A stretch of 64,000 nt of DNA from Candidatus Avelusimicrobium intestinipullorum (GTDB lineage: Bacteria; Elusimicrobiota; Elusimicrobia; Elusimicrobiales; Elusimicrobiaceae), in the NCBI GenBank assembly GCA_944324635.1, contig CALUXC010000008.1, forward strand, positions 1-64,000. Reading direction: 5' to 3'. The position numbers were made by a program, and so were the translations under genes. Below the pieces are notes generated by a model, which saw nothing but the letters and a program-made list of their open reading frames with translations, ran no database searches and had not been told where the DNA came from. Shown here piece by piece: positions 9,256-38,022 of this stretch. Position 1 is the first letter of the stretch. Every line of letters starts with the position of its first letter.

Positions 9256-11640
9256 ATGAAGATACTTTATTCTTGGCTGAAAGATTTTATAGACATTGAT
9301 TTGGCTCCCGAAGAACTGGTCAAAAAACTGACCGACCTCGGCATAGAAGTGGCCTCCGTGGAAACCACGGGTGCGGATTTTGAAGGCGTAAACGTGGCCC
9401 AAATTATCAAAATTGAGGATCACCCCAACTCCGACCACTTGCACTTGGTGACGCTGGACCTGGGCGGCGGCAAAACGCAGCGCGTCGTGTGCGGCGCGCC
9501 GAACGTGGCCGTCGGTCAGAAAGTGCCGCTTGCGCGTGTAGGTGCGCGCTTGGGCAAAAACGTACTCAAGCCGGCGGTAATCCGCGGGGTGGAATCGGAA
9601 GGAATGATTTGCTCGTCCGATGAGCTCGGCCTTACGCAAACCCGTGCCCGCGGTATTATGGTGCTGGACGAAAACCTTCCCCTGGGGACGGACGTTTCCA
9701 CCTTGTACGGCAAGCCGGATTCTTTGTTTGATTTGGAAATCACGTCCAACCGCCCGGATTTGCTCTCGCACCTGGGGGTAGCGCGCGAATTGGCGGCGCT
9801 TCTTAATAAACCGGTCAAATTGCCGGAAGTGAAAGCCGTAAAAGGCGAAGGCAAAGCCCTGGAAGTGGAAATTCAAAACGCCGAAGGCTGCCCGCGCTAT
9901 ACGGGACGCATTATCCGCGGCGTGAAAAACACCGAATCTCCCGAATGGATGAAACAGCGCCTGGCCGCTATGGGCCTCAACCCCAAAAACGCCTTGGTGG
10001 ACGTAACCAACTACGTCATGTTTGAACTGGGGCACCCGCTGCACGCGTTTGATTTGCGCGAAGTGGAAGGGGGCAAAATTATCGTACGCAACGCGCAGGA
10101 AGGCGAAAAATTTACGCTCTTGGGCGGACGGGAACTGACGCTGAACGAAAACTGCCTGATGATTGCCGACGCCAAAAAAGCCACTGCTCTAGCCGGCATT
10201 ATGGGCGGGCTCAACAGCGGAATTAAAGAAGATACGCAGGATATTTTTATTGAAGCGGCGTATTTTAACCCGCCGACGGTAAACAAAACGGTCAAAAAAT
10301 TTGCCGTTTCGTCCGATTCTTCCCAACGCTTTGAACGCGGTACGGATATTGAAGGCGTAACGCTTGCCATGCAGCGCGCGACGGATTTGTTCCTCCAGCT
10401 CTGCGGCGGCACAGCTTCGGAAGTGGTGGACGTGTACCCCACCCGCTACGAAAGTCCCACCGTTACGTTTACGCCGGAACAAATTAACTCCATTTTGGGG
10501 GCCCAAATTTCCGAAGAACGCCTGAAAGAAATTTTCGGTCGTTTGGCGGCCGAGTTCCAGGCCAACGGCGATCAATGGACGTTCAAAGCGCCCACCCACC
10601 GCCGCGACCTGAACCATAAATGGGACCTGTCCGAAGAAGCTGCTCGCTTTGCCGGATACGATATGATTCCCGTGTCCGAAACCAAAGCCAGCCTGGCGTT
10701 TGCCGATAATCCCAAAGGCATTGACTTGGGCAAAAAATATGCCCGCACCTTGATTGGGGCCGGTTTCTGCGAATGTAAAAACATTGACTTTTTGGGCGAA
10801 AAAGAACTCAAGGCGTTTGGGGCGGACCCCAAGTTTTGCATCAAGGTAAAAAATGCCTTGGCTCAAGGCTGGGACTATCTGCGCCCGACATTGCTGCCGT
10901 CCCTGGTGAAAAACGTGGAAAGTAACCTGCGTTTTGGAAACAGCAATTTGGCCTTGTTTGAAACCACCAAAACGTTCCAGTCCATTAAAGGCTTCCCGGT
11001 GGAAGGCTACAGCGTGGCCGGCGTATTAAGCGGCACCTTGGAACAGGAAAAATTCTTTGGCGGGGCCGAAAAACCGGTGGATTTCTACTGGTTAAAAGGG
11101 CTGATGCAGGCCCTGCTGGCGGACGTGGAAGGCATTTCGTTTGTGCCGTCTAAAACGGCGCCGGTGTATATGCACCCCAAAATTTGCATGGACATCTTGT
11201 TAAACGGCAAGAGCATCGGTCTGTTTGGCAAATTGCACCCGCTCACCCTGAAGGCTTTTGGCGTAAAAACGCAAGAGGTATGGGCGTTTGAATTTGCCAC
11301 GAAGATGATTGAAAAAGCGTTTTCCGCGCGGGATTTCAAACCGGCTAAAGATGTGGCGGTATTGCCGCCGTCTTTGCGCGATTTGTCCGTCGTGGTGGAC
11401 GAAACGGTGTCGTATGCCAGCATTACCAGCGCGTTAGACAAAACGCCCTTGGATGTGGATATGACCTATCACTTGATTGACTTGTATCAAGGCGAACACT
11501 TGCCTGCCGGTAAAAAGAGCGTCACGTTCTCGCTGGCGTTTTCCAACCCGCAGCGCACGCTGAAAGATAAAGAAACCGACGACGCTTTTAACCGCATCGT
11601 GCAGCAACTGCGCGAACAGGTGGGAGCGGAGCTGAGATAG
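9256..11640 (+). CDS. pheT: Phenylalanyl-tRNA synthetase beta subunit
   Basis: At 794 residues this is a full-length PheT. In order it has the N-terminal domain (MKILYSWLKDFIDIDL), the tRNA-binding OB domain (about residues 45-150, with HPNSDHLHLV and VVCGAPNVAVGQKVPLA), the B3/4 editing domain (about 210-375, with DVTNYVMFELGHPLHAFD), the B5 domain (about 400-470), the pseudo-catalytic core, and the C-terminal anticodon-binding FDX-ACB domain (about 700-794, RDLSVVVDE). It forms the heterotetramer with PheS. A short coiled-coil gene follows after one base. Confidence 0.97.
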   Translation: MKILYSWLKDFIDIDLAPEELVKKLTDLGIEVASVETTGADFEGVNVAQIIKIEDHPNSDHLHLVTLDLGGGKTQRVVCGAPNVAVGQKVPLARVGARLGKNVLKPAVIRGVESEGMICSSDELGLTQTRARGIMVLDENLPLGTDVSTLYGKPDSLFDLEITSNRPDLLSHLGVARELAALLNKPVKLPEVKAVKGEGKALEVEIQNAEGCPRYTGRIIRGVKNTESPEWMKQRLAAMGLNPKNALVDVTNYVMFELGHPLHAFDLREVEGGKIIVRNAQEGEKFTLLGGRELTLNENCLMIADAKKATALAGIMGGLNSGIKEDTQDIFIEAAYFNPPTVNKTVKKFAVSSDSSQRFERGTDIEGVTLAMQRATDLFLQLCGGTASEVVDVYPTRYESPTVTFTPEQINSILGAQISEERLKEIFGRLAAEFQANGDQWTFKAPTHRRDLNHKWDLSEEAARFAGYDMIPVSETKASLAFADNPKGIDLGKKYARTLIGAGFCECKNIDFLGEKELKAFGADPKFCIKVKNALAQGWDYLRPTLLPSLVKNVESNLRFGNSNLALFETTKTFQSIKGFPVEGYSVAGVLSGTLEQEKFFGGAEKPVDFYWLKGLMQALLADVEGISFVPSKTAPVYMHPKICMDILLNGKSIGLFGKLHPLTLKAFGVKTQEVWAFEFATKMIEKAFSARDFKPAKDVAVLPPSLRDLSVVVDETVSYASITSALDKTPLDVDMTYHLIDLYQGEHLPAGKKSVTFSLAFSNPQRTLKDKETDDAFNRIVQQLREQVGAELR

Positions 11641-17968: not shown

Positions 17969-18288
17969 GGCCTACTTATAAAATAGGCCCTTTGTCCCCT
18001 TGTTGGGCAGGTGGCAAGTTTACTAAAATATGGGTGGAGAAGGATAAAAGGAGTTGTAATGTACTGCGCAACAAGCAAACAATCGGTGTGCCAGCGCTTG
18101 CCTTGGCGGCTAAAGCCCCAAACGGCAGCTAGCGTTGCCGCTTTCCCTTTTTTAGCTGTTCGCCCTTCTCAGATTTACAGAAATCAACAAGCCGTTTCCT
18201 ATACAATATTCCTGCAGTGTATGCAGGACCTATTTTTATATAGGGCCAAAAGCCTAAGTTATCTAGGTCTTTTGGCCCTATTTTTTTG
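17969..18288 (+). ncRNA. Candidate leader RNA or sRNA upstream of the MFS fusion gene
   Basis: This roughly 320-base stretch runs from an extended -10 promoter to a strong intrinsic terminator and has no recognisable protein. It starts with a GGCCTA / TAGGCC hairpin. A frame with a good Shine-Dalgarno (AAAAGGAG at 18045-18052) opens at ATG 18059 and runs 83 codons to 18310, through the terminator; its composition is not convincing (several Cys, Trp and Phe, no family). It could be an sRNA, or the attenuated 5' leader of the gene at 18330. It does not show tmRNA, RNase P or SRP RNA signatures. Confidence 0.4.
18240..18288 (+). terminator. Strong terminator 42 bases before the MFS fusion gene
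   Basis: A 13-bp stem (ATAGGGCCAAAAG / CTTTTGGCCCTAT) with an inner CTA/TAG extension is followed by seven T. It could end a separate small RNA or act as an attenuator for the next gene. Confidence 0.85.
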
Positions 18289-18329
18289 TAAATATTTAGC
18301 ACATAATTAAGAGAGAGAGGAGCCTACTT

Positions 18330-21300
18330 ATGAAAAAGATACTAGCAGCCGTGTTAAGCATCAGTCTTCTCGTCAGTAGCGTAACCCCGTCGCTGGCGCA
18401 GCTCGTTCCTGCCGGACGCCAAGTTGTAAAAGGTGTTGCCGTTTCTGGAGCCAAACAACTTCCCGCAAGCATTGGCAAACAAGTTGCGAGTGGCGTTGCT
18501 AAAGAAGGTGTGGCTGCGTCTTCTGCGGCAAGCCGGTTTTCTCGTGGGGTGCGCAATCTTCCTGCTACCGTTACGGTTCCCAATTCCTCTCTCCCGCAAG
18601 TTCTCCATGCTCCCATTAATACTGCCGTAGAACGCTCTATCCAAGAACAGTTGGCTGTGAGCGGCAAAGATATTCGCGCGTTTGTAAAAGCGGGGCAAAT
18701 TGAAGGCATTGCCACCCGCATTTTGAAATATCCCAACGCGGCTTACCGCGAAGGATTGCTTCGCAACGAATTTGTTACGGTGGCTTTGAAAGGCGGTGCC
18801 GAAAAAGCCCAGCTGGAAGAAGCCGTTAAATTTTATCGGGAAGATTTGCAAAAAGCTTCCGAAGCGTTTGCCAAATTGCCCAAAGGCAACTTGGCGGGTT
18901 TGATTCGCTCCGCTACGGATAAAACCAGCCCCTCTTACCAAACCCTGTTGCAGGCGCACAGCGCGTTGGCCTCGGCCGGTGCGTTGGGGTTGTTGGGCAC
19001 CCGCGCCGATGCCGAAGCTTTAATCACCTTTTATAACCAAGCCTCTCAGAGCGTATTCAAAGACACCGCCGCGGTAATCGCCGCGCGCGGTTTATTGCGT
19101 CAAGGGGCTTATGAACAACTCCAGCAACTGGCCCAGCTGACCAAAGCCGAAGGCCCTTTCTGGCAGGGCGTAGCGGAAATCGCGGCGGAAAAAGGCTTGC
19201 CGGTACAGATTACCGTCAACACGGCTTCCGCGGCGGCCGCCCCGGCTTCCACCGGGCTCAAGAGCTTTTTAAGATCCGGCTGTGAACCCAACGGCTTAAA
19301 CGCCGACATTTCCCGCCAGGCCACCGAAGCTTGGTTGGCCTTGGGTACCAAAGAAGCTGCCGCTGAAGCGGCTGTGGCGGCGAAACCTGTGGCCGCTGCA
19401 CCGGCGCTTGACGTAGAACTGCCGGAATTGACCCTGACGGGTGCCAATTTGAATGTTTCTCCCATTGCGCTGACCGGTGAAAATACGGCGGTCCAAACGG
19501 CCGAAGCCGCCGCTCCTGCGCAAACCCAACTGCAGCAAAAAACGGTCCAATTTTTAGCCAAGAGTTCTTCCGATAATTCCGGTGTGCTTTACAGCGGCTT
19601 GCCCGTTTTCTCCATGGGCAAGATGTTCCAAAAAGCTACCGCCTGGCTGCGGGGCAAATTCGGCAAGAAAGCCCCTGCCGTACCGGCCGCCTCTGAAAAT
19701 GCCGCCGTGGAAGAAGTGCCCGGCTTGCATGACGATTCCGAAATTCACGAAGTTTTCAGCAATTTGCGCTCTCCGGAATTCCCCGCCTCTGCCGATGAAG
19801 TAATCAGCGCCAACGAAACGGGCCTGGTTCCCGTGTCCGAAAAAGGTTTCAAACTGACGTTGATCGACGAAAAAGGCGTGGAACGCATCTTGCCCGTCAA
19901 CCTGGAAATCAGCAACCGCTTCCGCGTGAAAGGCTATAACCGCATTGCTTTTGCCGCTCATTCCGACTTTAAGCACGGTTACGTGGCGGAATTGCGCAAC
20001 CAGGAACAAGAACCCCTGCGCATGGCGCACTTCTATATGAGATTGCAGTCCAACCAAGTAGGTGCGCTGGCGGACTTGCTGGAATCGGCCGGGGTAGAAA
20101 AATTTAGCCTTAAATTGGAAAACAACCCGAACGTAGCGTATAAATCCATCAAAGTGGCCGCGTTTGATTTCGTAACCGGCAAAGAATTGCCGCTGGAAAT
20201 TGAACTGCCGAAGAAAAACTTCCCGCCCGAAGCCAAAGTGGTGGTGATGGAAGACGGTGCGCTGGGCATCTTGAAGAAAGGCGCCGAAAAACCGTACGCT
20301 TTGAGCGGCTTTTATGTCCGCCTGCCGAAAAACCAGATTTCTAACTTCGTGGAAGTGCTGCGCTACAGCCCCACTCCTTTCAACGTATCCGTCCACCCCA
20401 CGCAGAACCGCGCGGATTTGATTATGCGCGATGCCTCGCTGACCAACGTCAGCTTGGGTAAAACGATGGGCCCGGTGGTAAACGGCGCTTTGAATATGGA
20501 CGTGGGCACCGCCAACAGCATGATGTTCACCATCAACTACATTTTGCCGGGCTTGGCCTCGCTGCTGACGCCTATCTTAAAGAAATACGGCGAAAAGAAA
20601 ATGATGGTGCTGTCGCTGGCGATGTCTTCCGCGGCGGGTGTATTGGCCAGCGCGGGCGGCTTCTACGGGTTCGTGGAAGGGCTGACGCTGGGCCCCGTAT
20701 CCAAAGGGCTGTTCATTACGGCGCTGTTCTTGATGAGCGGTTCTAGCATCTTGAAGCAGTTGGTGTCCAACATGTTGATCCGCGCCAACCGCGGGGAAGT
20801 GATTTTGGACGATGCCAAAGAAGCCATCAAAAAATCTGAAACCGAATTTACCTCGCAGGAAAAACAAGGCTTTGCGCAAATGGGCCTGCGCTTGAAAGAA
20901 TTCTTTACCAAAAAATCCAACGTAAGCCTCAAGGACGTAGTGCTCTACAACTTGAGCTTCGTATATAAGAACGTAGGTACGCTGGCTTTCTTGGCCTCCC
21001 CGTACTTGATTAACCACGGTATCCTGTTGGCCACCGGTACGGACTTGGGTATTGATTACTCCATCAGCTTCCCGATTTACGCGGTGTACAGCGGTGTAGT
21101 GGCCTGGAAAGTGCATCGTGCCAAATTGCGCGACGCGTATTCCGCCAAGAATTTGGAACAGAGCCAAAAGAACCTGCAAAAGACCATTTCTTCCGGCGCT
21201 GAAGCCTTGGCCGAAGTGCAAGGGAAAGTGACTTCTACGCAAATTGACGATGCGGCCCGTGCGTTTAAGGACGCTTTGGACGCGATGGTGTTCGCGGATA

Positions 21301-22166
21301 TCAAACTGAACCCGAACCAGAAGAAATCGGACTTGTACGCACAGGAAAAAGCGCGCCTGCTGGAAAATTTGGAAAAACAAATGGTGGAAACCCACGGTAT
21401 GGACGCGGCCAAAGCCAAAGACATTACCGCTGACGTGAAATCTTCCTTGGCCATACAGGAAAACACTTTCGGCAATATGCTCAAAATGCTCAAAGCCCCC
21501 GGTGTTACCCCGTTGGCTACGGCCATGACGCTGGCCACCATTCACGAGTTCGTAATCTCCAGCTCGTTTTCCAGCACGATGAAAGGCTTGATTTCGCAGG
21601 GTGAATTTGCCAACTTCTTAATCGCCTGCTCGCTGTACGTGCCGCTGATTGCCGGCCGCTTGGGCGGCAACCTGATCAGCCGCCGCATTAGCGCCGACAG
21701 CATGTACATCTTGTGCTCCGCGTTATCCGCCATCGGTACGGGCGTGATGGCCACCGCGGGCGACAGCGTAGCCCAGATGGTTACCGGTGCGGCTGTGGCC
21801 AGCTTCGGGGTGGGTAACTTCTTCACCCAGATGTATGACTACATCATGAACCGCTATCCTAAACAGAACCGCGAATTGTCCTCTATCTTGGCTTTGACGA
21901 TGGCTCTGGGCGGTCTGGGTGCTATCCCGGCGGGCTTCTTGGCCTCCATGACCGGTTTTGACCCCGCCTCCCTGCTCTATGCGGGTGCGGCCTTGGGCGC
22001 CAGCTTGGTGTTGACCCCCGGCATGATGTCTCACTCCACCTTGGTTAAAGGCATGAAGTACGAAGCCAACCGCTTGTGGAAAGGCGTGAAGAACCTGTTC
22101 AAACGCAACAAAAACAATAACAATAACCCGGGCGCCAATCTGGACGATGCGACCCCGGCCCAGTAA
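18330..22166 (+). CDS. Large exported-type protein fused to an MFS transporter-like domain, 1278 aa
   Basis: This 1278-residue protein is a fusion I do not recognise as a named family. It begins with a signal peptide (LAAVLSISLLVSSVTPSLAQ). Residues about 40-300 are helical, with HEAT-like repeats around 205-270 (SALASAGALGLLGTRADAEA), followed by an Ala/Pro-rich linker to about 450. Residues about 502-605 and 606-705 are two copies of one alpha/beta domain, seen in HFYMRLQSNQVGALADLLES versus GFYVRLPKNQISNFVEVLRY. From about 710 to 1245 there are about ten hydrophobic helices like a major facilitator core (GRLGGNLISRRIS loop), split by a charged helical insert near 930-1040. The tail is Asn-rich. 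A GAGAGGAG Shine-Dalgarno precedes the ATG, and a strong terminator lies in the leader. Transported substrate, if any, is unknown. Confidence 0.8.
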   Translation: MKKILAAVLSISLLVSSVTPSLAQLVPAGRQVVKGVAVSGAKQLPASIGKQVASGVAKEGVAASSAASRFSRGVRNLPATVTVPNSSLPQVLHAPINTAVERSIQEQLAVSGKDIRAFVKAGQIEGIATRILKYPNAAYREGLLRNEFVTVALKGGAEKAQLEEAVKFYREDLQKASEAFAKLPKGNLAGLIRSATDKTSPSYQTLLQAHSALASAGALGLLGTRADAEALITFYNQASQSVFKDTAAVIAARGLLRQGAYEQLQQLAQLTKAEGPFWQGVAEIAAEKGLPVQITVNTASAAAAPASTGLKSFLRSGCEPNGLNADISRQATEAWLALGTKEAAAEAAVAAKPVAAAPALDVELPELTLTGANLNVSPIALTGENTAVQTAEAAAPAQTQLQQKTVQFLAKSSSDNSGVLYSGLPVFSMGKMFQKATAWLRGKFGKKAPAVPAASENAAVEEVPGLHDDSEIHEVFSNLRSPEFPASADEVISANETGLVPVSEKGFKLTLIDEKGVERILPVNLEISNRFRVKGYNRIAFAAHSDFKHGYVAELRNQEQEPLRMAHFYMRLQSNQVGALADLLESAGVEKFSLKLENNPNVAYKSIKVAAFDFVTGKELPLEIELPKKNFPPEAKVVVMEDGALGILKKGAEKPYALSGFYVRLPKNQISNFVEVLRYSPTPFNVSVHPTQNRADLIMRDASLTNVSLGKTMGPVVNGALNMDVGTANSMMFTINYILPGLASLLTPILKKYGEKKMMVLSLAMSSAAGVLASAGGFYGFVEGLTLGPVSKGLFITALFLMSGSSILKQLVSNMLIRANRGEVILDDAKEAIKKSETEFTSQEKQGFAQMGLRLKEFFTKKSNVSLKDVVLYNLSFVYKNVGTLAFLASPYLINHGILLATGTDLGIDYSISFPIYAVYSGVVAWKVHRAKLRDAYSAKNLEQSQKNLQKTISSGAEALAEVQGKVTSTQIDDAARAFKDALDAMVFADIKLNPNQKKSDLYAQEKARLLENLEKQMVETHGMDAAKAKDITADVKSSLAIQENTFGNMLKMLKAPGVTPLATAMTLATIHEFVISSSFSSTMKGLISQGEFANFLIACSLYVPLIAGRLGGNLISRRISADSMYILCSALSAIGTGVMATAGDSVAQMVTGAAVASFGVGNFFTQMYDYIMNRYPKQNRELSSILALTMALGGLGAIPAGFLASMTGFDPASLLYAGAALGASLVLTPGMMSHSTLVKGMKYEANRLWKGVKNLFKRNKNNNNNPGANLDDATPAQ

Positions 22167-22183
22167 GAAATAATAATTTGACT

Positions 22184-22212
22184 AAGCCCCGGCAAATGCC
22201 GGGGCTTTTTTG
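22184..22212 (+). terminator. Terminator after the MFS fusion gene
   Basis: Stem AAGCCCCGGCA / TGCCGGGGCTT followed by TTTT. Confidence 0.92.
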
Positions 22213-37468: not shown

Positions 37469-37498
37469 TTGAGTGAATTTGAAGTGTTTTGATATATT
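37469..37498 (+). promoter_or_regulatory. Promoter of the second pilin gene
   Basis: TTGAGT (37469-37474), an 18-base spacer and TATATT (37493-37498) with extended TG at 37490-37491. Confidence 0.65.
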
Positions 37499-37527
37499 GT
37501 AAATATCTTGGAAAACAAGAGGAAATT

Positions 37528-38022
37528 ATGCATAAAAAACAAAAAGGTTTCACATTAATTGAATTATTGGTAGTTGTATTAATTATCGGCATTTTGGCGG
37601 CGGTAGCGTTGCCGCAGTATGAAAGAGCTGTGATGAAAAGCCGCATGAGCAGCATGTGGCCGCTCATTAAAGGAATTAAGGACGCCCAGGAGTCATACTA
37701 TATGGCCAACGGTACCTATTCGGACGATTTGAGCCGGCTAGATATTACCGTTCCTAAGGGGAACTTGCGTTCTAATTCATCGGTCGGGCAGGAAGATTAT
37801 ACCAACGGAACCTGTCTGGATAATCTGTTTGGTGCTACCTCGTCCGGCTGGTTGGTGGCGGGCGGAATCGGCAAAAATTGTTCCAGCGGGGCCACCAATG
37901 GCTGCTTAATCCGCGTATGGCTGGATCATTCCGTTAAGCCGGGCGTTATAGAATGTTCCGGCACGCATGAAAAATGTGCTTCGGTATGCAAGACGTTTGA
38001 TTTTGTGACCAAAACCAAATAA
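37528..38022 (+). CDS. Type IV pilin-like protein (second isolated gene)
   Basis: The 164-residue product has a basic leader MHKKQKG, cleavage before Phe, Glu at +5 and the helix FTLIELLVVVLIIGILAAV followed by ALPQYERAV. The C-terminal domain has Cys pairs (GTCLDN, KNCSS, NGCLI, IECSG, KCASVCK) and Gly/Ser-rich loops like a major pilin. It is the same length as the pilin at 3756 but differs in the C-terminal half. AGAGGA precedes the ATG. It is alone between folD and lepA; assembly genes must be elsewhere. Confidence 0.9.
   Translation: MHKKQKGFTLIELLVVVLIIGILAAVALPQYERAVMKSRMSSMWPLIKGIKDAQESYYMANGTYSDDLSRLDITVPKGNLRSNSSVGQEDYTNGTCLDNLFGATSSGWLVAGGIGKNCSSGATNGCLIRVWLDHSVKPGVIECSGTHEKCASVCKTFDFVTKTK

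What the first reader, a model, noticed from the sequence alone, without database searches (positions are those of the whole stretch)
18330..22166. 1278-residue fusion of signal peptide, helical region, duplicated beta domain and MFS-like core
MFS transporters normally have about 400-500 residues and no cleavable signal peptide. This protein puts some 700 residues of apparently exported sequence before the membrane core, plus a charged helical insert inside it. The order suggests a periplasmic sensing or binding module hard-wired to a transporter, or a scaffold that only keeps the MFS fold. I know no named family with this layout.
Basis: partly seen in the sequence, partly recalled or inferred. 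Interest (0 to 1): 0.72.

Follow-up and report, generated by a model that had tools for sequence, protein, structure and literature searches.

The report
Exported-domain MFS fusion in gut Elusimicrobia
A gut bacterium of the little-studied phylum Elusimicrobiota makes a large membrane protein in which a transporter-like core, apparently missing its first membrane helix, is permanently joined to about 700 residues of secreted protein; it belongs to a fast-changing, mix-and-match protein family found only in this bacterial family and not described anywhere I could search.

Summary
Window 18330-22166 (+) encodes 1278 aa: Sec signal peptide, helical domain (about 92-350), Ala/Pro linker, a truly duplicated beta domain (500-694), and an MFS-fold core (about 705-1232) with a charged helical insert in its central loop. 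PF07690 just passes its cut-off. AlphaFold2 is confident in the core, and Foldseek matches solved MFS transporters. The beta domain has no match in the PDB.

Orthologues with the same domain order sit at the same locus across Candidatus Avelusimicrobium. The family was found only in Elusimicrobiaceae. It diverges far faster than its neighbours, and the exported N-terminal part is exchanged between orthologues and paralogues. Near-identical N-terminal stretches in several genomes coincide with contig ends. Relatives carry tandem MFS cores, a 5'-nucleotidase or trypsin-like repeats.

Topology is the surprise. Loop charges give the normal MFS orientation, C-terminus inside, but the TM1 region is more hydrophilic than soluble-protein background and is predicted broken. 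This fits an exported N-terminus feeding an 11-helix core. Paralogues that keep TM1 are a caveat.

Best reading: an inner-membrane MFS-type transporter with a fixed periplasmic binding or gating module. Transport and substrate are inferred, not shown.

The parts
17985..18329 (+). Conserved leader between coaD and the gene: promoter-like TTTACTaaAATAT, GGAGAAGGATAAAAGGAG box, hairpins, possible small ORF
   Evidence: 77% mean column identity over 10 orthologous loci; codon-position variability nearly flat, so weakly coding at best; no Rfam family reaches its cut-off
18240..18288 (+). Terminator-like hairpin plus T run, 42 bases before the start codon (possible attenuator)
   Evidence: 15 pairs kept in nearly all 10 sequences; sequence read
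18316..18322 (+). Ribosome-binding site AGAGGAG
   Evidence: sequence
18330..22166 (+). Coding sequence of the 1278-aa fusion protein
18330..18398 (+). Sec-type signal peptide, residues 1-23
   Evidence: hydrophobicity score 1.57 (family median 1.58), SLA|Q cleavage motif, conserved in complete orthologues
18603..19379 (+). Helical exported domain, residues about 92-350
   Evidence: AlphaFold2 pLDDT mostly above 90, all helix; shared with three other proteins of the genome
19380..19577 (+). Ala/Pro-rich disordered linker, residues 351-416
   Evidence: pLDDT mostly below 50
19578..19670 (+). SGVLYSGLP motif and basic amphipathic helix, residues 417-447
   Evidence: shared with paralogues; not hydrophobic enough to be a clear membrane helix, score 8.3
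19827..20129 (+). Beta repeat 1, residues 500-600
   Evidence: AlphaFold2; homologous to repeat 2
20130..20411 (+). Beta repeat 2, residues 601-694
   Evidence: AlphaFold2; no PDB fold match for the pair
20409..20492 (+). Degenerate TM1 of the MFS fold, residues 694-721, conserved SLGKT core
   Evidence: two short helices broken by a loop; family median score 9.26 against 1.8-5.6 for TM2-12
20502..21119 (+). TM2-TM6 of the MFS core, residues 725-930
   Evidence: AlphaFold2 and Foldseek; positive-inside alternation
21132..21494 (+). Charged helical insert in the central TM6-TM7 loop, residues 935-1055
   Evidence: four to five confident helices; K/R-rich, cytoplasmic by positive-inside
21504..22010 (+). 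TM7-TM12 of the MFS core, residues 1059-1227, with nearly invariant E1073
   Evidence: PF07690 best stretch 1064-1228
22038..22163 (+). Basic C-terminal tail ending LDDATPAQ
   Evidence: tail charge and conserved LDDAxPAQ ending in many orthologues
22184..22211 (+). Intrinsic terminator after the gene
   Evidence: sequence AAGCCCCGGCAAATGCCGGGGCTTTTTT

Best explanation
This is an inner-membrane protein of a gut Elusimicrobiaceae bacterium (Candidatus Avelusimicrobium) whose C-terminal half keeps the MFS fold. The signal peptide sends the N-terminus through Sec (inferred). The helical domain and the duplicated beta domain then sit in the periplasm (inferred from the signal peptide, the lack of a clear membrane segment before TM2, and the dead TM1). 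The chain enters the membrane at TM2, giving 11 real helices in the normal MFS orientation with the C-terminus inside (supported by loop charges). The beta domain joins the core at the periplasmic end of TM2 in place of TM1. There it most likely acts as a fixed substrate-binding or gating module for import or exchange of a solute, driven by a proton or counter-ion through buried conserved charges (K880, E1073). The helical domain probably docks partners or envelope material. The fold and domain order are well supported; the topology is a reasoned inference; transport and substrate are guesses.
For: MFS fold: PF07690 over cut-off, AlphaFold2 core mostly pLDDT above 80-90, Foldseek hits to FLVCR1, MdfA and SV2A at E about 1e-6. 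Orientation: K+R per 10 residues is 1.4-2.2 in loops 2/3, 4/5, 6/7, 8/9, 10/11 and the tail, against 0.03-0.42 in 1/2, 3/4, 5/6, 7/8, 9/10, 11/12. TM1: family median score 9.26, worse than the best windows of soluble proteins (5.7-7.3), while TM2-12 are 1.8-5.6 and the signal peptide 1.58; the best segment between signal peptide and beta domain is about at soluble background (median 6.2) in 28 complete orthologues. In tandem-MFS relatives the second core, which follows a cytoplasmic end, keeps TM1 (3.3-3.7) while the first has lost it (7.5-9.9). Function: K880 and N881 invariant and E1073 conserved in at least 90% of 55 sequences; dN/dS mostly 0.07-0.16 for beta and core against 0.22-0.33 for the N-terminus.
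Against: TM1-bearing paralogues (L002 family, L056) have the same type of N-terminal module, signal-peptide-led where complete, and a canonical 12-helix core with no obvious extra crossing; either their topology is frustrated or the N-terminal module does not always end outside. The core helices are less hydrophobic than those of ordinary MFS transporters of the same genome (mean 3.9 against about 1.3-2.1). Motif A is poorly kept. No transport substrate is hinted at by neighbours, which are housekeeping genes. The hydrophobicity score is my own simplified scale, not a trained topology predictor.
Confidence: 0.5

Rival explanations
1. Scaffold: the MFS fold is kept only as a membrane anchor or assembly platform for exchangeable exported modules and no longer transports.
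For: Weak membrane helices and lost TM1. Exported modules are swapped, near-identical stretches are shared between paralogues, and relatives carry a 5'-nucleotidase or trypsin-like repeats. Divergence is fast: median 39% identity for the gene against 71% for the downstream PHP gene.
Against: The core is the slowest-evolving part, with dN/dS mostly 0.07-0.16, and keeps invariant polar or charged residues inside helices; a pure anchor would not need a whole MFS fold.
Confidence: 0.28
2. Twelve helices with a cytoplasmic beta domain: the chain re-enters at the SGVLYSGLP segment (or the N-terminus is not exported) and the weak TM1 still spans, as in the TM1-bearing paralogues.
For: Basic clusters follow the SGVLYSGLP motif in several family members. 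Paralogues keep TM1. Marginal helices can insert with help from neighbours (general knowledge).
Against: The motif segment scores 6.4-9.1, at or worse than soluble background, and is missing in orthologues L011, L078, L079, L085 and L086 that keep the rest. TM1 is more hydrophilic than background and predicted broken.
Confidence: 0.22
3. An ordinary MFS exporter with a decorative N-terminal extension of no functional consequence.
For: Best structural neighbours include multidrug transporters such as MdfA.
Against: The duplicated beta domain is about as conserved as the core (81% against 84% identity to L004, a close relative) and is present in all orthologues aligned across it.
Confidence: 0.06

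Closest known systems
Major Facilitator Superfamily (Pfam MFS_1, PF07690); solved neighbours FLVCR1/FLVCR2 and MdfA
   Same: Fold of TM2-TM12, loop-charge pattern, large central loop; Foldseek TM-score over target about 0.7
   Different: TM1 degenerate, motif A poor, about 700 exported residues in front, only 9-13% identity
SV2A/SV2 and PepT2-type transporters (MFS with a soluble domain on the non-cytoplasmic side)
   Same: MFS core carrying a soluble domain on the outer side; both appear among the Foldseek hits
   Different: Their domains are inserted in loops between late helices (from memory); here the domain is N-terminal, signal-peptide-led and replaces TM1; its fold has no PDB match
Other Elusimicrobiaceae giant signal-peptide proteins (939-4512 aa, found here)
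   Same: Related signal peptide and/or N-terminal module or beta-MFS core; same family
   Different: Some keep TM1, some have two MFS cores, some add a 5'-nucleotidase or trypsin-like domains, some lack a recognisable MFS core

Membership tests
Major Facilitator Superfamily | Score over the PF07690 gathering cut-off | tested here: met
   34.7 against 33.4 bits, E 1.2e-8
Major Facilitator Superfamily | MFS fold (two six-helix bundles) by structure comparison | tested here: met
   AlphaFold2 model matches many solved MFS proteins, E about 1e-6
Major Facilitator Superfamily | Twelve membrane-spanning helices | tested here: not met
   TM1 region broken and hydrophilic in the family; eleven helices remain
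Major Facilitator Superfamily | Both termini cytoplasmic, no cleavable signal peptide | tested here: inconclusive
   C-terminus inside by loop charges; N-terminus carries a Sec signal peptide but export was not measured
Major Facilitator Superfamily | Motif A (GxLaDrfGrr) in loop 2/3 | tested here: inconclusive
   Loop 2/3 reads LTPILKKYGEKK, lacking the Asp; loop 8/9 has GRLGGNLISRR
Major Facilitator Superfamily | Solute transport | not testable with these tools
   needs an assay
A named transporter family (NCBIfam/Pfam equivalog) | Score over a family-specific cut-off | tested here: not met
   only generic MFS_1; NCBIfam hits far below cut-off
HEAT/ARM-type repeat proteins (considered for residues 92-350) | Match to a HEAT/ARM profile | tested here: not met
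   all-helical model, but no Pfam HEAT/ARM match at E up to 1

The most novel reading that the evidence does not exclude
A lineage-specific envelope protein family in which MFS cores were rebuilt as 11-helix, signal-peptide-led proteins. Loss of TM1 let an exported domain of unseen fold plug directly into the transporter mouth. The exported modules are reshuffled by recombination between paralogues, so that one transporter core can be paired with different periplasmic binding or enzyme modules.
Probability: 0.35. Interest if true: 0.78.

Novelty: new variant of a known kind. Interest (0 to 1): 0.62.

Why it matters
MFS is among the largest transporter superfamilies, and its N-inside, 12-helix topology is close to a rule. 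A family that leads the fold with a Sec signal peptide, drops TM1 and fuses the core to an exported duplicated domain of no known structure would be a clean natural case of how membrane topology evolves, and would suggest how secondary transporters could gain a built-in periplasmic binding module. The tandem cores with and without TM1 in one chain make the topology rule directly testable. For biology, it is a fast-evolving, recombining membrane-protein family of a poorly studied gut phylum and may decide what these bacteria take up. It also explains part of the fragmentation of their assembled genomes.

Tried and rejected
PDB sequence search with the whole protein returned only antibody constant domains at E 0.05 or worse over the first ~120 residues: low-complexity chance hits. 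Weak Pfam and NCBIfam hits (RHH_4, AA_kinase, VapB) are far below cut-off and rejected. No plasmid records and no PHROG family match, so no sign of a mobile or phage origin. Tandem repeats as the cause of the contig breaks: none found in two intact relatives; near-identical paralogous N-terminal stretches were found at the breaks instead. HEAT repeats for the helical domain: suggestive helices only, no profile match. Re-entry at the SGVLYSGLP motif: kept only as a rival, because the segment is too polar and is missing in some orthologues. Reading the upstream leader as a small protein: not supported by codon-position variation. The Elusimicrobium minutum genome paper I tried is not held, and literature searches found no description of the family; most subscription journals are outside that library.

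Full report
WHAT IS THERE. The ORF at 18330-22166 (+) gives 1278 residues, with a clean ribosome-binding site and its own terminator. It lies between coaD/dGTPase-like genes and SulP, PHP, SH3 and secA genes (gene names are my reading of the translations). The host genome is 1.57 Mb. The closest named relatives are gut and rumen Elusimicrobiaceae, including a record named Candidatus Avelusimicrobium.

DOMAINS. Residues 1-23 form a Sec signal peptide. AlphaFold2 on 79-1278 with 55 family sequences gave mean pLDDT 81 and pTM 0.65: an all-alpha domain at about 92-350, a disordered linker, a short basic amphipathic helix (426-444), a beta domain (500-690), and an MFS-like core with four to five extra helices in the central loop. 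The two halves of the beta domain are homologous (probability 95.9, E 5.4e-9, 84 columns). A separate model of the beta domain (pLDDT 81) has no PDB neighbour (best E 0.5, probability at most 0.1), so its fold may be unseen. The core matches solved MFS proteins such as FLVCR1 and MdfA and just passes PF07690.

TOPOLOGY. Family-wide loop charges alternate exactly as in a normal MFS protein with cytoplasmic C-terminus: K+R per 10 residues 2.17, 1.77, 1.43, 1.41, 2.08 and 1.91 for loops 2/3, 4/5, 6/7, 8/9, 10/11 and the tail, against 0.42, 0.12, 0.38, 0.41, 0.03 and 0.19 for 1/2, 3/4, 5/6, 7/8, 9/10 and 11/12. A 12-helix core in that orientation needs its N-terminus inside, which conflicts with a signal peptide. 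The conflict goes away because TM1 is degenerate: the region scores a median 9.26 (lower is more membrane-like), worse than the best windows of soluble proteins in the window (5.7-7.3), while TM2-12 score 1.8-5.6. No clear crossing lies between signal peptide and beta domain in 28 complete orthologues. AlphaFold2 breaks TM1 into two short helices. In relatives with two MFS cores, the second, which follows a cytoplasmic end, keeps TM1 (3.3-3.7) while the first has lost it (7.5-9.9). I therefore infer an exported N-terminal half and 11 helices. Caveat: paralogues without the beta domain (L002 family) and L056 keep TM1 behind the same type of N-terminal module; their topology is unresolved.

FAMILY. 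P0001 finds relatives in 32 of 37 same-genus genomes (some through paralogues or fragments) and in none of 24 genomes of a sister family. A profile search of 199 genomes of the phylum found matches in 47 genomes of the same family (three genera) and only short signal-peptide matches in two others. One scan of 84,980 species genomes returned 54 loci; every record title that names a taxon names Elusimicrobia, the rest being uncultured bacteria. Of the 54, 42 keep the downstream PHP gene, and median identity to the window is 39% for this gene against 71% for PHP; SecA stays at 82-96%. The protein therefore evolves unusually fast for its locus, although beta domain and core are under purifying selection (dN/dS mostly 0.07-0.16, N-terminus 0.22-0.33; synonymous sites are near saturation, so these are rough). 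Some members have other N-termini and reach 1817-2029 aa or open frames of 3968 and 4512 aa.

MODULES AND RECOMBINATION. The window's genome has three further members: 939 aa (module plus MFS, no beta domain), 1525 aa and 922 aa. Relatives elsewhere carry a calcineurin-like/5'-nucleotidase domain after an MFS core and an extra membrane helix, or two MFS-like cores followed by trypsin-like repeats. In several genomes the orthologue lies at a contig end. In the three genomes tested this way with a hit, the terminal DNA has a near-identical copy in another member, also at a contig end or within a few hundred bases of one: 204 bp at 91%, 282 bp at 96%, and three copies of 127 bp at 99-100%. Past the shared stretch the proteins diverge. 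This looks like recent exchange or gene conversion of exported modules, and it explains assembly breaks; short-read assembly artefacts cannot be excluded without long reads.

FUNCTION. K880 and N881 (TM5) are invariant in 55 sequences, and K711, E1073 (TM7), N1163 and Q1167 (TM10) at least 90% conserved. A lysine in TM5 and a glutamate in TM7 inside the membrane are what one expects of a coupled transporter (established knowledge of MFS; not tested). Together with the beta domain at the periplasmic mouth and enzyme fusions in relatives, I favour a transporter with a fixed periplasmic module. A non-transporting scaffold remains a serious rival.

KNOWN OR NEW. It is MFS by fold and profile, but fails the 12-helix feature and belongs to no named transporter family. 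SV2A and PepT2 show that an MFS protein can carry an outer domain, but in loops, not as a signal-peptide-led N-terminus replacing TM1 (from memory). No description was found in the open-access library. Verdict: a new variant of a known kind, with a possibly new domain fold and an unusual family biology.

Noticed in passing
window 17985-18329: Highly conserved leader (77% column identity across 10 species) with a terminator-like hairpin 42 bases before the start codon; possibly an attenuator or unknown cis-regulatory RNA, found once in the genome.
   Followed up: partly
L081, L082, L083, L084 (about residues 60-1390 of each open frame): Relatives with two MFS cores in one chain: the first without TM1, the second with TM1.
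   Followed up: partly
L056:903-6176 (-): A family member joins an MFS core, one further membrane helix and a calcineurin-like/5'-nucleotidase domain.
   Followed up: partly
L180:1757-13660 (+): A 3968-aa protein with two MFS-like cores and a C-terminal run of trypsin-like domains; the single 1,643,562-bp contig matches the size I recall for Elusimicrobium minutum Pei191.
   Followed up: partly
G016:C1 and C8 ends, G030:C6/C7 ends, G034:C27/C29/C38: Near-identical N-terminal coding stretches of different family members coincide with contig ends, suggesting recent exchange between paralogues.
   Followed up: partly
L169:1622-9371 and 9576-10931: The 1525-aa paralogue of the window's genome is flanked by ordinary MFS transporter genes.
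   Followed up: no
window 37483-38019: Encodes a protein with relatives near many of the homologous loci, apparently a multi-copy family.
   Followed up: no
L170:2995-5760 (-): A 922-aa paralogue keeps the signal peptide and helical module but has a C-terminal part without any Pfam match.
   Followed up: no
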